A DNA stretch of 64,000 bases from Microlunatus antarcticus (lineage in GTDB: Bacteria > Actinomycetota > Actinomycetes > Propionibacteriales > Propionibacteriaceae): the NCBI RefSeq assembly GCF_014193425.1, contig NZ_JACHZG010000002.1:62001-126000 (forward strand). The letters are read 5' to 3'. A program made the translations under genes and the position numbers. Each line of letters starts with the position of its first letter. Position 1 is the stretch's first letter. Positions 4,859 through 62,284 of the stretch are shown piece after piece. The notes under the pieces were generated by a model that was not told the DNA's origin, made no database searches, and worked only from the letters and a program-made list of their open reading frames with translations.

Positions 4859-4977
4859 GTCCGGCGACGTCCTAGTCTCCCACACGGTCTCCCGTGCAGT
4901 ACCATCGGCGCTGTAAGGCTTAACTTCCGGGTTCGGAATGGGACCGGGTGTTTCCCTGACGCTTTGATCACCGAAAC
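4859..4977 (-). rRNA. rrf: 5S ribosomal RNA
   Basis: About 119 nt. On the minus strand it begins GTTTCGGTGATCAAAGCG and contains the conserved CCGAACCCGGAAGTTAAG core and the GATGGTACTGC segment. The 5' and 3' ends pair through GU-rich helix I, which sets the ends to within a few bases. It follows 23S rRNA by about 100 bp in the same operon. Confidence 0.93.
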
Positions 4978-5076
4978 TCTATAGAGATGTGGTGCGAAAC
5001 CAGTCTCGATCGGAGACGACTGGTCTTTCGACCGTGTCTCGAGAGACCTCACAGTGGACGCGTAGCATCTTTGTAG

Positions 5077-10087
<5,011 letters not shown>

Positions 10088-56032: not shown

Positions 56033-57268
56033 TCAGCGCGTCGACGCGAGCGACCAGGCCGCCTCGACCGCCGCCTCGAACCGGCGGGTGCTGGCTCCTT
56101 CGGCGGTCTCGCCGAAGTAGTACGCCGAGAGGTCCGCCAGCAGCGGGTCAACCGCCCGCTCCGACCCGGGCTCTCCCAGGCCACGGCTCCCCAGCACGTC
56201 GAGCACCGAGCCGGCCGCCGACGCCGGGAGCAGCGGCAGCTCGTCGAGCAGCCGGGACGCGGGACGGTAGGCCTCCGACGACGCCGGTTCGGTGACGACG
56301 AGCGGCTTGCCCGTGGCGAGCCAGTCGTAGGCGACCGAGGACAGGTCCGTGACGCAGGCGTCGGCGAAGTCCCACTGCCACCCGTACGGGCCGCTGTCGA
56401 CCAGGTGCCGGTCACCGTCGCGGGCGAGCACCGCCCGGACCGCGCGGTCCGCCTCGGCGTGGCGGGGCGAGCTGAGACCCGTGCGCGGGTGCGGCCGGTA
56501 GACCACACGGACGTCCGGGTCGGCGACCAGCGCCTCGACGAGCTCGACGCCGTGGCTGACCAGCGACCCGTACGCGACGCTCGGCCGGTCGCCCTCCCAG
56601 GTCGGGGCGTACCAGACCCGCACCCCGCTGCCGCGCGACCAGTCGGGTGCGCCCGGGTAGGCGTGGTCGAGCTGAGGACGGCCGACCGGGACGGTGCGGG
56701 CGTCCGCGTCGAAGCCGCGCAGCGCCGCCCCGAGCCGGTCGCGACCCGCCGGACCGCCGACGAAGGTCAGGTCGTACGCCTTGTGCTGGTTGGAGACGCT
56801 GTAGGCCTTGTCGCTCTCGCCGTGCCCGAGCTGGACGTGCACGGGACCGGCGAAGCGGAGCATCCGGAAGTTGCGCTCCACCTGGTTGACGTAGAGCACG
56901 ACCCGCACGTCGCGCTCGTCGACGAGCCGTTCCAGGGCGCCGCTGCCCTGGGCGAAGGCGACGGGCAGGGTGCTGCGCGCCAGCACGGCCTCCCCGGTGT
57001 CGGGCCGGTCGACCACGACGAAGGTCGGCCGCGTCCGCGCGAGGTGCTCGAGCGGGCGGCGCCACTGCTCCAGCTGGAACAGGTTGTCCGGGTCGGTGCA
57101 GAAGTAGACCGCGACCCCGCCGTTGGGAACGAGGCCGTTCTGCTCCGCCCTCTCGGCGAACCCGCCCGCCGCCACGGAGTTGCGGGCACGCCGGACGGCC
57201 TCGGCGCCCAGACCGGCCGCCCGACGCAGGCGAGCGGCGCCGGGCAGCTCGGGGAGAGGGAGCTTCAC
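56033..57268 (-). CDS. CDP-glycerol:glycerophosphate transferase-like protein (TagF/TagB family)
   Basis: 411 residues from GTG 57268, overlapping gnd by four bases (GTGA). The C-terminal half has the GT-B-like features of the family: VHVQLGHGESDKAY (acceptor His), RVWYAPTWEGDR, VVYRPHPRTG and VTDLSSVAYDWLATGKPLVVTEP. It would move phosphoglycerol or a related unit from CDP-activated donor to a wall or membrane polymer. Neighbouring CDP-alcohol phosphotransferase and GT2 genes support a surface-polymer role. Confidence 0.85.
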   Translation of the reverse strand: MKLPLPELPGAARLRRAAGLGAEAVRRARNSVAAGGFAERAEQNGLVPNGGVAVYFCTDPDNLFQLEQWRRPLEHLARTRPTFVVVDRPDTGEAVLARSTLPVAFAQGSGALERLVDERDVRVVLYVNQVERNFRMLRFAGPVHVQLGHGESDKAYSVSNQHKAYDLTFVGGPAGRDRLGAALRGFDADARTVPVGRPQLDHAYPGAPDWSRGSGVRVWYAPTWEGDRPSVAYGSLVSHGVELVEALVADPDVRVVYRPHPRTGLSSPRHAEADRAVRAVLARDGDRHLVDSGPYGWQWDFADACVTDLSSVAYDWLATGKPLVVTEPASSEAYRPASRLLDELPLLPASAAGSVLDVLGSRGLGEPGSERAVDPLLADLSAYYFGETAEGASTRRFEAAVEAAWSLASTR

Positions 57269-58779
57269 GAGATCGGCTGGTCGACCTTCTTCTCGTCGGT
57301 GTGCGTGCTCTTGTCCGCCTTGAAGTCCCCGCCCACCGCCGTCTCGGAACGGTCGCCGCTCCACTCGACGTGGAACGTGCCCTCGCGGTCCACGCGTCGG
57401 TAGGTGTGCGCGCCGAAGAAGTCGCGCAGGCCCTGGATCAGCGCCGCGGGCAGGTGGTCGGCCCGGACGCCGTCGTAGTAGGCGAGCGACGACGAGAACG
57501 CCGGCGTCGGGATGCCGTTGAGCGCCGCACCCGAGACCACCCGGCGCCACGCCTCGAGGCACTCGTCGATGACGCCGACGAAGAAGTCGTCGGCGATGAG
57601 CAGCGGGAGGTGCTGGTCGCGCTCGTAGGCCTCGGTGATGCGGTTCAGGAAGCGCGCCCGGATGATGCAGCCGCCGCGCCAGATCCGCGCCATCGCGCCG
57701 CGGTCGATGTCCCAGCCGTACTCGGTGCTGGCCGCGGCGATCTGGTCGAAGCCCTGGGAGTAGGCGACGACCTTGGAGGCGTAGAGCGCGCGCCGGACGT
57801 CCTCGACGAAGGCGTCGGCGTCGTCTGCGCTGGTCGGTCGGTGCCACTCCACGGTGCCGGCCGGCAGCACGCCCCGGGCCGCCTCGCGCTGAGGCACGGA
57901 GCCCGAGAGCGCCCGGGCGAAGGTCGCCTCCGCGATCCCGGTGATCGGCACCCCGAGGTCGAGCGCGTTCTGCACCGTCCAGCGGCCGGTGCCCTTCTGC
58001 TCCGCCTGGTCGAGGACGACGTCGACGAGCGCCTGGCCGGTGGTCGCGTCGGTCTGGGCGAGCACGGTGGCGGTGATCTCGATGAGGAACGACTCGAGCT
58101 CGCCCTTGTTCCACTCGGTGAAGATCTCGGCGATCTCCGCGGGGCTCTTGCCCGTACCCCGGTGGATGAGGTCGTACGCCTCGGCGATCAGCTGCATGTC
58201 GGCGTACTCGATGCCGTTGTGCACCATCTTGACGAAGTGCCCGGCGCCGTCGGGGCCGATGTAGGTGCAGCACGGGACGCCGTCGACCTTGGCCGAGATG
58301 TCCTCGAGCAGCGGGCCGAGGGACTCGTACGACGTGCGGGACCCGCCCGGCATGATCGACGGACCGTTGAGCGCGCCCTCCTCGCCCCCGGAGACGCCGC
58401 TGCCGACGAAGTGCAGGCCGTGCTCGGCCAGCGCGTTCTCGCGACGGATGGTGTCGGGGAAGTGCGCGTTGCCCGCGTCGACGACGATGTCGCCCTCCTC
58501 GAGCAGCGGCACGAGCTCGTCGATGACCGCGTCGGTGCCCGGGCCGGCCTTGACCATGATGATGACCTTGCGCGGCTTGGCGAGGGAGGCGACGAAGTCC
58601 TCGAGGCTCTCCGAGGCGAGGAACGTGCCCTCGTCGCCGGCCTCGTCGAGCAGCGCCTGCGTCTTGGCGAAGGTGCGGTTGTGGATGGCCACGACGTGGC
58701 CGTGGCGGGCGAAGTTCCGGGCGAGGTTCCGCCCCATGACGGCCAGTCCCGTGACCCCGATCTCGGCTTGCTGGCTCAT
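57265..58779 (-). CDS. gnd: 6-phosphogluconate dehydrogenase, decarboxylating
   Basis: 504 residues from ATG 58779. NADP-binding start IGVTGLAVMGRNLARN with NRT after strand 2; VDAGNAHFPDT, the active-site GSGVSGGEEGALNGPSIMPGG and VKMVHNGIEYADMQLIAEAYD with catalytic Lys and Asn. Long (dimeric) form; the C-terminus extends about 20 charged residues beyond the usual end. Pentose phosphate pathway source of NADPH and ribulose 5-phosphate. Overlap with the TagF-like gene is odd and may be chance operon fusion or may link ribulose/ribitol phosphate to polymer synthesis. Confidence 0.95.
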   Translation of the reverse strand: MSQQAEIGVTGLAVMGRNLARNFARHGHVVAIHNRTFAKTQALLDEAGDEGTFLASESLEDFVASLAKPRKVIIMVKAGPGTDAVIDELVPLLEEGDIVVDAGNAHFPDTIRRENALAEHGLHFVGSGVSGGEEGALNGPSIMPGGSRTSYESLGPLLEDISAKVDGVPCCTYIGPDGAGHFVKMVHNGIEYADMQLIAEAYDLIHRGTGKSPAEIAEIFTEWNKGELESFLIEITATVLAQTDATTGQALVDVVLDQAEQKGTGRWTVQNALDLGVPITGIAEATFARALSGSVPQREAARGVLPAGTVEWHRPTSADDADAFVEDVRRALYASKVVAYSQGFDQIAAASTEYGWDIDRGAMARIWRGGCIIRARFLNRITEAYERDQHLPLLIADDFFVGVIDECLEAWRRVVSGAALNGIPTPAFSSSLAYYDGVRADHLPAALIQGLRDFFGAHTYRRVDREGTFHVEWSGDRSETAVGGDFKADKSTHTDEKKVDQPIS

Positions 58780-58911: not shown

Positions 58912-59880
58912 TTGTTGGAACCGCTGGGCATCCCCGCCGACGCGGAGGCGCTCTACGTCGTGCTCGCCTCGCTCGACGAGGCCACGGCGCAGGAGCTCAC
59001 GCAGCGGACGGGCACGCCGGTCGCCCAGGTCGCCGCGCACCTCGACACGCTCGCCGATCTCGGCCTGGCGGTGGCGCTGGGCGAGGGCCTCTGGAACTCG
59101 CTCCCCCTCGGTGACGTGGTCAAGGGTCTCGAGCTGCGGCGCCGCGCCGAGATCGAGGCCGCCGTGATCGCGGCGGACACGCTGCAGAACCAGCTGCTCG
59201 CCGCGTCCCACAGCTCCGAGGACGACGTGCAGGTCTTCGTCGGCCAGACGTCGTGGGCCGAGTACACGCGGCTGTGCGACGAGACGACGTCCGAGATCTG
59301 CCTGTTCGACAAGCCCCCGTACGTCGGCGGGCCGTCGATGCTGTCGCCCGACGAGCTCCGGGAGGCGTCCGGGGAGTGGCGCGCCCTGGAGCGCGGGGTC
59401 TCGCAGCGCAGCGTCTACCACCCGGGCTTCGACCCGGAGCGGCTCGAGGAGATGGCGCTCTTCGCCAACATGGGCGAGAAGTCGAGGACGGCACCGGTGC
59501 CGATGAAGCTCGTCCTCTTCGACGCCAAGATCGCCTGGATCCCCTCGATGCCCTCCTACATGCCGGGTCACGAGCGGCGGGCCAGCTTCGTGCGGCACCC
59601 GCTGATCGTCGAGTCGCTCGTGTGGCTCTTCAACGCGGTGTGGGACACGGCGATCCCGATCACGGCCGGGACCTACCTCAACGGCGACCCGCGGCGCCAG
59701 ATGCTGATCTCGCTGATGATGAGCGGCTCGACCGACGACGCGATCGCCAACCAGCTCGGGATCAACGTGCGCTCCGTACGTCGCTGGATCGCCGAGCTGA
59801 TGGACGAGCTGGGCGTCACCACGCGCCTGCAGCTGGGCGCGGCACTGGTCCGCGCCGACTCCATGCGCACCAGCGGCTGA
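58912..59880 (+). CDS. TrmB/LuxR-type two-HTH transcriptional regulator
   Basis: 322 residues if started at TTG 58912 (or TTG 58915); GTG 58813 is an alternative but would leave little room for a promoter between this gene and divergent gnd. N-terminal MarR/TrmB-like winged HTH (LYVVLASLDEATAQELTQRTGTPV...), middle PLD-like sensor region (VFVGQTSWAEYTRLCDETTSEICLFDKPP; PVPMKLVLFDAKIAWIP), C-terminal LuxR-type HTH (DDAIANQLGINVRSVRRWIAELMDELGV). This actinomycete class usually stands near small-peptide or secondary-metabolite genes. The adjacent gene encodes an exported peptide. Confidence 0.85.
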   Translation: MLEPLGIPADAEALYVVLASLDEATAQELTQRTGTPVAQVAAHLDTLADLGLAVALGEGLWNSLPLGDVVKGLELRRRAEIEAAVIAADTLQNQLLAASHSSEDDVQVFVGQTSWAEYTRLCDETTSEICLFDKPPYVGGPSMLSPDELREASGEWRALERGVSQRSVYHPGFDPERLEEMALFANMGEKSRTAPVPMKLVLFDAKIAWIPSMPSYMPGHERRASFVRHPLIVESLVWLFNAVWDTAIPITAGTYLNGDPRRQMLISLMMSGSTDDAIANQLGINVRSVRRWIAELMDELGVTTRLQLGAALVRADSMRTSG

Positions 59881-59906
59881 CCCGCCGAAGAACCCTGCGG
59901 ACGCCA

Positions 59907-59938
59907 AGAAGGGTGCCTCCGGACGGAGACACCCTTCT
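59907..59938. terminator. bidirectional terminator
   Basis: Arms AGAAGGGTGCCTCC and GGAGACACCCTTCT (one mismatch) around a 4-base loop, between the convergent regulator and exported-peptide genes. T-rich on the plus side. Confidence 0.75.
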
Positions 59939-59983
59939 CGCGAGCAGGTCCTGCGCGGCCGCCGACCGGCGGCCGAGCGTGGA

Positions 59984-60130
59984 TCAGTAGCCGCGACCGA
60001 GCTGGACGACGCGCACGACCTGCGCGGCGTCGGCGGGCCCGCCCAGGAAGAGGAAGGCCACGGTGGCGCCGGCCACGACGGAGGTGGCGGAGAGACGGAC
60101 GGCCTTGCGGAGGGTGAGAGAGGAGAACAT
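59984..60130 (-). CDS. 48-residue exported peptide precursor (candidate signal peptide)
   Basis: ATG 60130 to TGA 59984, with GAAAGGA eight bases upstream. N-terminus MFSSLTLRKAVRLS is basic, followed by a hydrophobic core (TSVVAGATVAFLFLGG) and an AxA signal peptidase site (P-A-D-A before A36), so the predicted mature product is a 13-residue peptide AQVVRVVQLGRGY. Too short for routine gene finders. It is convergent with the TrmB/LuxR-type regulator and separated by a terminator. Its upstream region has a perfect palindrome. A pheromone-like or host-interaction role is a hypothesis. Confidence 0.65.
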   Translation of the reverse strand: MFSSLTLRKAVRLSATSVVAGATVAFLFLGGPADAAQVVRVVQLGRGY

Positions 60131-60150
60131 CTGATGAATCCTTTCTTATT

Positions 60151-60187
60151 CGGCCCTTGATACGAGAATTTTTTGCACCAAGGGCCG
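60151..60187. promoter_or_regulatory. palindrome flanking an AT-rich core upstream of the peptide gene
   Basis: Perfect arms CGGCCCTTG (60151-60159) and CAAGGGCCG (60179-60187) enclose a 19-base AT-rich core (ATACGAGAATTTTTTGCAC). It ends 20 bases before the start codon of the exported peptide. It may be an operator around the promoter (possibly for the neighbouring regulator) or a 5' UTR hairpin. Confidence 0.5.
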
Positions 60188-60651
60188 CGTTGGGGGGTCG
60201 TTCGGAACGTTATGCGGTTTCCACGACCCGGTCACCCTGGAGCAGCGTCAGGTTGAGGACATTTCCGGATGCGGACACGGCAAAATCGCGTTAGGTGCTC
60301 TTTCCACCCCAACGCGCACACAGCCGGACGCTGTCCGTTCTCCGCCTTCGACCCTGAGTGCGGCCCCTCTTCCCGCGGACGACCCGGCGAGCGCGGGCCC
60401 TCGGGCCCGGCGGTCTCGGCGGTGGCGCGTCGTGCAGCGCCAGGGGTGCGTCCTGACACGCACCTCGTTGTCGTGTGACACACTTCACCCGCAAAGGCGT
60501 AAGGTCAAGCACATCGCCGTTCTGTCCCCGGTAGGGACGACGCCACGGCGTGCCCCCTGGCGCTTGCCGAGCTGCTCGGGCACTCTGCCCCGGGCCGCGC
60601 GCGGCCCGTCCTCCTCCGCGCACTGTCGGACCCGGGTGTCATCGTAGGGAG
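60188..60651. other. intergenic region with several palindromes, no gene
   Basis: 464 bp between the peptide gene and the M4 peptidase gene. Contains a hairpin CGCGTT...AACGCG (60287-60316), followed by ATTTTG on the minus strand (terminator-like for an unseen minus transcript), and a perfect inverted repeat GGTGCGT-CCTGAC-ACGCACC (60445-60464), an operator candidate. Open frames here lack protein-like composition. Confidence 0.6.
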
Positions 60652-62109
60652 ATGACGACGACCACCCCAGCCCCGTCCGTGGGCACCCCGCCGCAGCGCT
60701 GCGGCTTCGTCCCGCCGTACCTCCTGCAGCGGGTCACCGAGACCTCCCGGGAGCGCCGTCTGGTCGCGGACGGGCGCGACACCCTGGCCGTCGACGAACG
60801 GATGCGCACCCGACGGGCCGAGGCGTCGTCCACCACCCCGCCGCTCGCCCCCGACGCCGGCGGCAACCGCGTCGTCTACGACGCGCAGGGCGCCGAGGTG
60901 CTGCCCGGGACGCGCGTGCGCGACGAGGACGACCCGCCCACGGGCGACGCGGCCGTCGACGAGGCGCACGACCACTCCGGGGTCGCCTGGGACCTCTTCG
61001 CCGACGTCTTCGACCGGCGCTCGGTGGACGGTGAGGGGACACCGCTCTCGGTGACCGTGCACTACGGCCGGGACTACGACAACGCGTTCTGGGACGGCAC
61101 CCAGCTGGTCTTCGGCGACGGGGACGGCCAGGTCTTCGACCGCTTCACCAAGCCGCTCGACGTCACGGTCCACGAGTTCACCCACGGGGTCACGCAGTTC
61201 ACCGCCGGGCTGACCTACCAGGGCCAGTCCGGGGCGCTCAACGAGAGCGTCAGCGACGTGTTCGCCGCCATCGCCAAGCAGCGCGCGCTCGGGCAGAGCG
61301 CCGACGAGGCCGACTGGCTCATCGGCGTGGGCCTGTTCCTGCCCGACGTGAAGGCCACGGCCCTGCGGTCGATGATCGCGCCGGGCACCGCGTACGACGA
61401 CCCGCGGCTGGGGCGCGACCCGCAGGTCGCCAGCATGGACGCCTACGTCGAGACCGAGGAGGACAGCGGCGGCGTGCACATCAACTCGGGCATCCCCAAC
61501 CGCGCCTTCGCCCTGGCCGCGAAGGGGATCGGCGGCAACAGCTGGGAGCGCCCGGGGCAGGTCTGGTACGCCGCCATCACCGGCGGCGGCGTGACGCCTT
61601 CCACGGACTTCGCCGGCTTCGCGCGGGCGACCGTCGACGCGGCGACGGGGTTGTTCCCCGACGACGCGTCCGTGGCGCAGCAGGTGACCCTGGCGTGGCA
61701 GGAGGTGGGCCTGCTGCTGGACGGCTCGGCCGCGGTCGCCGCCCCGCTGACCCCGGCCGCCCCGGCCGCGCCCACCGAGCCCGCCGAGCCGTCCGGTTCC
61801 GCCTCCCAGGGGGTCCCGGCCCTGCCGGGCGAGGACGGCGACGACGTCGTCGCCGTCCGTCGCACGGGCGGCTTCACCGGCGTCCCGCGGTTCGCCGAGA
61901 TGAGCCTCGGGAACGACGACTCGGCCGACGAGCTGCGCCGCCTGCTGAGCCAGATCAGCGTGTCCGGCCTGGCCCCGTCGGAGCCGAGCCCGGACCGCTT
62001 CACCTACACGGTGGCCTGCCGGTCGTTCGAGCTGACGGTCCCCGAGCAGGACCTCACGCCCGAGCTCACCCGGGTCGTGCAGATCGTGCTCGACCAGCAG
62101 GACCGCTAG
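60652..62109 (+). CDS. M4 protealysin-like metallopeptidase fused to an emfourin-like inhibitor domain
   Basis: 485 residues from ATG 60652. No signal peptide. N-terminal FVPPYLLQRV resembles the short protealysin propeptide. Zinc motif HEFTH at 174-178 and Glu of NESVSDVF near 198; active-site His of HINSGIPNRAF near 276. After a Pro/Ala linker (about 365-395), residues 400-485 (VRRTGGFTGVPRF through CRSFELTVPEQDL) resemble emfourin, a protein inhibitor of protealysin encoded beside the enzyme in Serratia. Here both seem joined in one chain. The TAG stop lies in the boundary of the following palindromic element. Confidence 0.85.
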   Translation: MTTTTPAPSVGTPPQRCGFVPPYLLQRVTETSRERRLVADGRDTLAVDERMRTRRAEASSTTPPLAPDAGGNRVVYDAQGAEVLPGTRVRDEDDPPTGDAAVDEAHDHSGVAWDLFADVFDRRSVDGEGTPLSVTVHYGRDYDNAFWDGTQLVFGDGDGQVFDRFTKPLDVTVHEFTHGVTQFTAGLTYQGQSGALNESVSDVFAAIAKQRALGQSADEADWLIGVGLFLPDVKATALRSMIAPGTAYDDPRLGRDPQVASMDAYVETEEDSGGVHINSGIPNRAFALAAKGIGGNSWERPGQVWYAAITGGGVTPSTDFAGFARATVDAATGLFPDDASVAQQVTLAWQEVGLLLDGSAAVAAPLTPAAPAAPTEPAEPSGSASQGVPALPGEDGDDVVAVRRTGGFTGVPRFAEMSLGNDDSADELRRLLSQISVSGLAPSEPSPDRFTYTVACRSFELTVPEQDLTPELTRVVQIVLDQQDR

Positions 62110-62272
62110 GTCGTGTCTCGCGATCTCCGGCAGGTGCAGGCGTGGCATCCGCGCCCGATCCGGCCAGGAGGAGGAGCGAAAGCGCAGCGGGCTGCGCTGA
62201 GCGACTCCGACGCAGCCGGTCGGGATGCGGGGCCGCGGCTGCGCCCGCTGGAATCGAGAGACACGACCTAGC
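62105..62272. repeat. 168-bp imperfect palindrome, MITE-like element
   Basis: Begins GCTAGGTCGTGTCTC and ends GAGACACGACCTAGC, perfect terminal inverted repeats extending for 19+ bp with one mismatch, then an imperfect stem for most of the arm length and a perfect central hairpin AGCGCAGCGGGCTGCGCT (62181-62198). The ends carry CTAG, a target sequence used by some IS5-family elements. No coding frame. It looks like a non-autonomous transposon remnant or a very large hairpin terminator. Confidence 0.7.
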
Positions 62273-62284
62273 CGCTGACGAACG

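What the first reader, a model, noticed from the sequence alone, without database searches (positions are those of the whole stretch)
58912..60187. Regulator plus tiny exported peptide: a possible undescribed peptide-signalling module
A 48-codon gene with a good ribosome binding site, a clear signal peptide and an AxA cleavage site would release a 13-residue peptide (AQVVRVVQLGRGY). It lies tail-to-tail with a two-HTH TrmB/LuxR-type regulator whose middle region is a sensor domain, and a perfect palindrome around an AT-rich core lies upstream of the peptide gene. Regulators of this class are often near small-peptide genes in actinomycetes. The layout suggests the regulator senses the re-imported peptide or controls its production; that step is inference.
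Basis: partly seen in the sequence, partly recalled or inferred. Interest (0 to 1): 0.78.

Follow-up and report, generated by a model that had tools for sequence, protein, structure and literature searches.

The report
Peptide precursor paired with a regulator
Microlunatus bacteria carry a gene pair, a regulator and a small, usually exported, protein holding one to twenty-eight copies of a four-residue word that differs between species, which looks like a peptide-communication system that I could not find described.

Summary
The 48-codon gene is real and belongs to a conserved module in Microlunatus (genus named). A precursor gene lies tail-to-tail with the regulator in 19 of 20 genomes. In relatives it carries tandem copies of one tetrapeptide word per species: AHNL x21, VNGL x16, INGV x24, GNSL x12, GHTL x8; here GRGY x1. 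The copies vary at 28% of third codon positions but 3% and 1.5% of first and second. GRGY has no nonsynonymous change in the closest trio while the nine residues before it drift. So the selected unit is a C-terminal tetrapeptide, not the proposed 13-mer.

The proposed palindrome is a 5'-UTR RNA hairpin. The likely operator, [TGTCC-N6-GGACA]x2 at 60246-60277, has counterparts centred 123-135 nt before all 18 Microlunatus precursor genes with upstream DNA; the pattern occurs in 19 of 20 Microlunatus genomes and 1 of 177 others of the family.

The regulator is TrmB-like HTH + PLD-like fold + GerE. An M4 protease is the usual divergent neighbour.

Best reading: peptide autoinduction with an unusual receptor type. 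Export, processing and binding are inference; three precursors lack a clear signal peptide.

The parts
58912..59880 (+). Regulator, TTG start (58912 or 58915): TrmB-like winged HTH (about 1-64), long helix (66-99), TrmB/PLD-like sensor domain (about 101-250), GerE/LuxR-type HTH (about 255-315)
   Evidence: present in 20 of 20 Microlunatus genomes
59984..60130 (-). Peptide precursor, 48 aa, tail-to-tail with the regulator
   Evidence: only one clear match in its own genome
60026..60130 (-). Signal-peptide-like N-terminus, residues 1-35 (cleavage ADA|A predicted by eye)
   Evidence: pN 0.07-0.18 against pS 0.32-0.39 in the closest trio
59999..60025 (-). Residues 36-44, fast-evolving spacer
   Evidence: pN at or above pS in all three pairs
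59987..59998 (-). GRGY, the conserved C-terminal tetrapeptide word (single copy here; 2 to 28 copies of another word in the relatives outside the GRGY trio)
   Evidence: no nonsynonymous difference in three pairwise comparisons
60140..60146 (-). Ribosome binding site AGAAAGG, 9 nt before ATG
60151..60187 (-).
   Evidence: 38 of 39 cells paired (97.4%), 5 pairs with two-sided changes among three species, covariation 0.795, 0 of 500 shuffles as high; fold z -3.49
60207..60212 (-). -10-like TAACGT (TANNNT); a similar box is seen by eye in many of the relatives
   Evidence: by eye only, the sigma-70 scan found nothing
60246..60277 (-). Putative operator, two abutting 16-bp dyads TGTCC-N6-GGAAA / TGTCC-N6-TGACG (consensus [TGTCC-N6-GGACA]x2); centre about 61 nt upstream of the inferred transcription start
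60281..60298 (-). Conserved box GCACCTAACGCGATTTTG next to the operator; 9-mers of it are shared by up to 9 of 20 upstream regions
60652..62109 (+). M4 (thermolysin/protealysin-like) metalloprotease with a C-terminal emfourin-like domain; divergent neighbour of the precursor
   Evidence: Pfam Peptidase_M4, Peptidase_M4_C, Emfourin; found in the window and in 12 of 20 related loci

Best explanation
A peptide-autoinduction module. The precursor is exported (Sec) and cut so that short peptides containing the tetrapeptide word are released (GRGY here; one main word per species, up to 28 copies per precursor). The peptide returns to the cytoplasm by an oligopeptide importer and binds the TrmB/PLD-like sensor domain of the neighbouring regulator. 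The regulator acts at the two-dyad operator between the divergent precursor and M4 protease genes, probably activating them. Shown: regulator-precursor linkage, protein-level selection on the word, operator linkage, protease linkage. Inferred: export, cleavage sites, import, binding of peptide and of operator, sign of regulation.
For: Precursor tail-to-tail with the regulator in 19 of 20 Microlunatus genomes; the exception, G010, has an S33 peptidase plus a CFA-synthase-like gene there. Tandem copies of one main word per species with variable spacers; copies in ten precursors differ from consensus at 172 of 608 third codon positions against 19 and 9 of 608 first and second. A hydrophobic N-terminal segment in 15 of 18 complete precursors, and the word ends the protein in 15 of those 18 and in G005's truncated one. 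Operator before all 18 Microlunatus and both sister-genus genes that have upstream DNA. Operator pattern at two or fewer mismatches in 19 of 20 Microlunatus against 1 of 177 other family genomes (Fisher 3e-24). Sensor fold like TrmBL2/TrmB and PLD proteins.
Against: No binding, secretion or expression data. Three of 18 precursors lack a clear signal peptide: G001 and G015 are leaderless, G002 is weak. Three of 18 do not end in the word (G006, G007, G012). GNSL is repeated without spacers in G019, so its cut site is undefined. Word distance follows regulator distance only weakly (rho 0.28 over non-independent pairs), and the sensor domain is rather conserved (mean column identity 0.69) while the word changes, so receptor-word co-evolution is not demonstrated. 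TrmB-type domains are known (recalled) to bind sugars. No operator was found before the regulator gene itself. In the window's own genome the operator site has 3 mismatches to the pattern. In one search only 10 of the 19 positive genomes reach two mismatches at the precursor-linked site.
Confidence: 0.62

Rival explanations
1. Self-made probe of proteolysis: the repeat protein is a sacrificial substrate, and the regulator reads the tetrapeptides released by extracellular or intracellular proteases, so the cell measures proteolytic activity rather than cell number and adjusts protease genes.
For: M4 protease neighbour in 13 of 21 loci counting the window, with its own operator copy in four of them (L055, L056, L058, L059); S33 peptidase with the operator in G010, G024 and G102; distant relatives of the regulator sit near subtilisin- or trypsin-like genes in 9 of 20 loci against 1 of 40 control loci; up to 28 copies with varied spacers would suit release by several proteases.
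Against: Species-specific words suggest private recognition, which a general proteolysis probe would not need; single-copy GRGY is a poor probe; the M4 has no evident signal peptide (by eye) and protealysin is described as intracellular (PMC9505478, abstract start in the listing).
Confidence: 0.17
2. The precursor makes a secreted bioactive peptide (bacteriocin- or RiPP-like) and the regulator only controls its production.
For: Hypervariable mature part, leader-bearing, operator-linked, small; fits an antagonistic product as well as a signal.
Against: No obvious modification, immunity or dedicated export gene among the neighbour genes I read (by eye, not a full Pfam scan); 4-residue words in tandem are unlike known bacteriocins (recalled).
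Confidence: 0.1
3. Cytoplasmic partner: the repeat polypeptide binds the regulator directly as a multivalent co-regulator or anti-regulator; the signal peptide in most species is secondary.
For: Leaderless GHTL/GHSL precursors in G001 and G015 and a weak leader in G002.
Against: 15 of 18 precursors have a clear hydrophobic leader, and in the closest trio the leader is under purifying selection.
Confidence: 0.06
4. Surface or structural repeat protein (adhesin-like).
For: Leader-bearing repeats, up to 28 units.
Against: Irregular spacers and single-copy 48-aa members, conserved linkage to a regulator and operator.
Confidence: 0.05

Closest known systems
RRNPPA propeptide-receptor systems of Firmicutes (Rap-Phr, PlcR-PapR, NprR-NprX, AimR-AimP)
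   Same: Adjacent receptor and propeptide genes, exported propeptide, mature peptide mostly at the C-terminus, sometimes several copies per propeptide (up to six: PMC9765709, section 7 and passages read; PMC11343458, abstract and outline read)
   Different: Receptors there have TPR domains; here a TrmB/PLD-like domain with a GerE HTH. Convergent gene order, 4-residue word, up to 28 copies, Actinobacteria.
TrmB family transcription factors (archaeal TrmB, TrmBL2)
   Same: N-terminal winged HTH plus PLD-like effector domain
   Different: Extra C-terminal GerE HTH; linked to a peptide precursor and a protease.
LuxR-type AHL receptors
   Same: C-terminal GerE/LuxR HTH
   Different: The middle domain matches TrmB/PLD folds, and the sequence match to TraR is to its HTH only.
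Protealysin-emfourin pairs (Serratia; pairing recalled)
   Same: Short M4 protease with an emfourin domain
   Different: Here fused in one chain and part of an operator-linked peptide module.

Membership tests
RRNPPA | TPR peptide-binding domain in the receptor | tested here: not met
   Foldseek's best matches are TrmBL2, TrmB and PLD-fold proteins (first 50 rows shown)
RRNPPA | Adjacent propeptide with signal sequence and C-terminal pheromone | tested here: met
   adjacent precursor in 19 of 20 genomes; hydrophobic leader in 15 of 18 and C-terminal word in 15 of 18 complete precursors
RRNPPA | Peptide import and direct binding to the receptor | not testable with these tools
   none
TrmB family | TrmB-like winged HTH at the N-terminus | tested here: met
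   Pfam TrmB E 0.0005, but below the curated cut-off; TrmBL2 profile match residues 13-134, E 0.007
TrmB family | PLD-like effector domain | tested here: met
   2f5t TrmB effector domain E 1.6e-6, 1byr Nuc E 1e-7, on a model of mean pLDDT 79.1 and pTM 0.58
TrmB family | Sugar ligand | not tested
   none
LuxR/AHL receptors | Autoinducer-binding domain | tested here: not met
   matches to LuxR-type proteins are confined to the HTH
RiPP/bacteriocin cluster | Modification, immunity or dedicated export genes nearby | tested here: inconclusive
   none seen in the neighbour lists read; most neighbours were not scanned with Pfam

The most novel reading that the evidence does not exclude
A separate peptide-communication family of Actinobacteria: a TrmB-type PLD-fold receptor reads a species-private tetrapeptide. 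It arose from a protease-linked peptide sensor when an S33 peptidase gene, with operator, signal sequence and an internal repeat insert (xGQI in the sister genus), gave rise to a stripped-down tandem pheromone gene.
Probability: 0.35. Interest if true: 0.92.

Novelty: new variant of a known kind. Interest (0 to 1): 0.82.

Why it matters
Peptide quorum sensing with cytoplasmic receptors is known mainly from Firmicutes (recalled, and the scope of the two papers read in part). A self-contained module in Actinobacteria with an unrelated receptor fold, a four-residue word repeated up to 28 times, a mapped candidate operator and 16 distinct natural words in 19 genomes would make the origin of peptide-receptor specificity directly testable with cheap synthetic tetrapeptides.

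Tried and rejected
Rejected: the 13-mer as the conserved unit; the 60151-60187 palindrome as the operator; wide small-peptide linkage of the regulator class. For the last, among 20 distant loci (14 of genus g15, 5 of g18, 1 Microlunatus paralog) leader-bearing ORFs of 25-140 aa turned up in 5, none with a repeated end word. Nine distant loci read by eye earlier also showed no such precursor.

Led nowhere or weak: Rfam gave only the rRNA operon; sigma-70 and terminator scans were empty; Pfam and NCBIfam have nothing for the precursor. A single-protein scan of genome contigs returned 3 loci only but named the genus. Distant relatives of the regulator are on 92 plasmid records, mostly Streptomyces, all under 60% identity, not followed. 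The remote operator sites lie near unrelated genes: fatty-acid desaturase, small membrane proteins, a pilin-like 63-aa protein without a credible Pfam match in G009 and G004. All operator sites, remote and precursor-linked, number 1-9 per Microlunatus genome at three mismatches, with 0-1 for the reversed control. I saw no coherent regulon; my gene caller is home-made and misses genes. In the window's genome the two remote matches have 3 mismatches each and may be noise. S33 signal-sequence homology: against the G010 S33, three of 12 precursors (G014, G016, G019) score above all 27 unrelated signal peptides, others do not (G018, G009, G013, G007 are beaten by 10-15 of 27).

Caveats on tests: the operator was found by eye and its PWM built on the same 20 sequences it scores, so searches are the fairer tests. 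At three mismatches the precursor-linked site is found in 14 of 18 genomes. Of the 19 genomes positive, 10 have a precursor-linked hit, G010 an S33-linked one, G007 an M4-linked one, and 7 (G001, G003, G005, G008, G011, G014, G015) only remote ones. The negatives include G024 and G102, which have the regulator and a diverged operator. In one search the control places were picked by me arbitrarily, the loci are related to each other, and the patterns were changed after a first look, so p = 9e-5 is nominal. In some searches and 87 copies were found by their amino-acid word, which lowers nonsynonymous counts; the third-position divergence is the informative part. The regulator tree has 20 rows; G015 (partial) and G102 were left out.

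Literature: 10 searches of the open PMC library showed no description of this module in the listings. Subscription papers and preprints outside it were not searched.

Full report
What is there. The window carries, in order, gnd (57265-58779, minus; Pfam 6PGD), a regulator (58912-59880, plus), a 48-codon gene (59984-60130, minus) and an M4 metalloprotease (60652-62109, plus; Peptidase_M4, Peptidase_M4_C and Emfourin). The genus is Microlunatus by the titles of three related contigs, whose lengths match contigs of G017, G002 and G013.

Conservation. A clear ortholog of the regulator is in 20 of 20 genomes of the genus. In the family search (198 genomes), matches of 45% identity or more occur only in those 20 (a fragment in G015, at a contig end) and in two genomes of one sister genus (G024, G102). 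I read the DNA beside all of them. In 19 of 20 Microlunatus genomes an ORF lies tail-to-tail with the regulator and carries a short word, at the C-terminus in most. In this species and two close ones it is GRGY, once. Elsewhere: GRGI and GRGV (twice each), AHNL (21 copies counting one DHNL), VNGV (8 and 7 counting one variant each), VNSI (3 counting one VNGV), VNSL (3), GHTL and GHSL (8 each), GNSL (12), INGV (24 counting one INGL), LNGA (28 counting one LTGA), VNGL (16), VNGF (20), INGS (9 in the frame read) (all), and ANGL in G005, cut by a contig end. That is 16 distinct words in 19 genomes. The exception is G010, where an S33-type peptidase and a CFA-synthase-like gene (name by eye) take the place. 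In G024 and G102 an S33-type protein with 8 and 10 xGQI units inside lies tail-to-tail with the regulator (Pfam TAP-like for G024).

Chance and selection. Among 8809 stop-to-stop frames of 25 aa or more in 61 sources (60 loci and the window), 16 end in a 4-mer present three or more times. Nine of these are precursor genes, one is a reverse-strand frame of the AHNL gene, and six have end words containing arginine, one of them apparently in the GLDQQA repeat of L056. Between the three GRGY species the signal part has pN 0.07-0.18 against pS 0.32-0.39, residues 36-44 have pN 0.34-0.64 against pS 0.31-0.52, and GRGY has no nonsynonymous change (whole gene pN 0.12-0.24, pS 0.30-0.40). Within ten precursors, copies of the word depart from consensus at 19, 9 and 172 of 608 first, second and third codon positions (one search gives pN and pS for twelve). 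The copies were picked by their amino-acid word, which biases nonsynonymous counts down, but the third-position divergence shows that they are old copies held constant as protein. I conclude that the frame is translated and that the unit of selection is the tetrapeptide.

Operator and leader RNA. All 20 precursor or S33 genes with upstream DNA that I examined (18 Microlunatus, 2 sister genus) have two abutting dyads TGTCC-N6-GGACA, more or less degenerate, with fixed spacing. Their centre is 123-135 nt before the start codon in Microlunatus and 161 and 175 nt in the sister genus. In the window it is 60246-60277. A pattern search at three mismatches gave 1-9 sites per Microlunatus genome against 0-1 for the reversed control pattern, and none in the sister genus, whose site is diverged. 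At two mismatches 19 of 20 Microlunatus genomes but 1 of 177 other family genomes have a site. The window's own genome has only three-mismatch sites, and in 7 of the 19 the two-mismatch hits are remote ones only. The site family thus travels with the regulator at genus level, and I take it as its binding site (inference). In the three GRGY species 38 of 39 cells of its 13 pairs are paired, with two-sided changes at 5 pairs, and the G-U pairs only make sense in the peptide mRNA (fold z -3.49). It is an RNA hairpin of unknown function; mRNA protection is my guess.

The regulator. Sequence profiles find a TrmB-like HTH at the N-terminus and a GerE HTH at the C-terminus. The AlphaFold model (mean pLDDT 79.1, pTM 0.58) matches TrmBL2, TrmB and PLD-fold proteins. 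The middle is thus a TrmB-type effector domain; such domains bind small ligands (sugars, recalled). In the regulator tree GRGI/GRGV group with AHNL (96/98), apart from the GRGY trio, and xNG-type words occur on both sides of a deep, supported split. That looks like turnover of the word. A correlation of word and regulator distance is weak (rho 0.28, pairs not independent), so co-evolution is not shown.

Proteases. The M4 gene is found beyond the precursor (in G010 beyond the S33 gene) in the window and in 12 of the 20 loci L041-L060. Of the eight without it, L046 and L053 are cut by contig ends; L054 keeps only an emfourin-domain protein with its own operator copy; L048 and L049 have a subtilisin-like gene a few kb off; L051 has none that I saw; L057 and L060 are the sister genus with the S33 gene. 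G015 was not checked. In four loci (L055, L056, L058, L059) the M4 gene has its own operator copy upstream. Of 20 distant relatives of the regulator (14 from the 8-9 Mb genus g15, 5 from g18, 1 Microlunatus paralog), 9 have a subtilisin- or trypsin-like motif frame within 2 kb, against 1 of 40 arbitrary control loci from the same genomes (nominal p 9e-5). None of those 20 has a repeat-bearing leader ORF of 25-140 aa. This suggests that the regulator family senses peptides or controls proteolysis in general, and that a dedicated peptide gene is an invention of the Microlunatus lineage. The S33 genes of G010, G024 and G102 carry the same operator, and the G010 S33 signal peptide resembles those of three of 12 precursors (G014, G016, G019) more than any of 27 unrelated signal peptides does; most other precursors do not show this clearly. 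An origin of the precursor from an S33 gene is possible, not proven.

How it most likely works. Export, cleavage to a short peptide containing the word, import, binding to the TrmB-like domain, action at the operator, activation of precursor and protease. The operator centre is about 61 nt upstream of the inferred transcription start, where activators often bind (recalled). Shown: linkage, selection, operator conservation, fold by model. Inferred: everything about transport, binding and sign. Against a simple exported pheromone stand two leaderless precursors (GHTL, GHSL) and one weak leader among 18. The strongest rival is a proteolysis probe.

Known or new. The nearest known kind is the Firmicutes RRNPPA propeptide-receptor systems, some of which carry up to six pheromone copies per propeptide (PMC9765709, section 7 read, passages) and whose tandem propeptides are matured by extracellular proteases (PMC11343458, abstract and outline read). 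The receptor fold test for RRNPPA membership fails, so this works like such a system but is not a member. Ten searches of the open PMC library showed no description of it. A 2016 review of quorum sensing in Actinobacteria has no occurrence of 'Microlunatus' (PMC4748050, term search and passages only).

Noticed in passing
L057 3602-5578 and L060 3841-5832 (sister genus g6): S33-type peptidase with 8 and 10 xGQI units inside, tail-to-tail with the regulator ortholog and with a diverged operator upstream; G010's S33 lacks the units.
   Followed up: partly
L058 5158-6252 (G012): The INGS precursor changes reading frame inside the repeats; a second frame carries INGS to a C-terminus like that of G006 (DIHSL). 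Assembly error, slippage or phase variation not resolved.
   Followed up: no
L050 near 5485 and L021 (G001, G015): Leaderless precursors: eight GHTL or GHSL units separated by K, R, SK or NR, good RBS, operator at the usual distance.
   Followed up: partly
L054 2511-2825 (G002): Stand-alone emfourin-domain gene with its own operator copy where relatives have the M4-emfourin fusion.
   Followed up: partly
L082/L090, L086/L093, L088/L091, L081/L089, L083/L092, L103/L120: Remote operator copies at corresponding places in two genomes each (G018/G011; G009/G004), near a fatty-acid desaturase, an 84-aa protein, a small protein of 74-85 aa, a pilin-like 63-aa protein; L081/L089 lie between convergent genes.
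   Followed up: partly
window 62105-62278: Imperfect inverted-repeat element after the M4 gene: 74% match to its own reverse complement over 168 bp, no second copy in the genome at E 0.001.
   Followed up: partly
L056 2812-3813 (G013): Short-chain-dehydrogenase-like protein (by eye) with five tandem GLDQ-type units at its N-terminus.
   Followed up: no
window 4859-10087: 5S, 23S and 16S rRNA genes on the minus strand.
   Followed up: no
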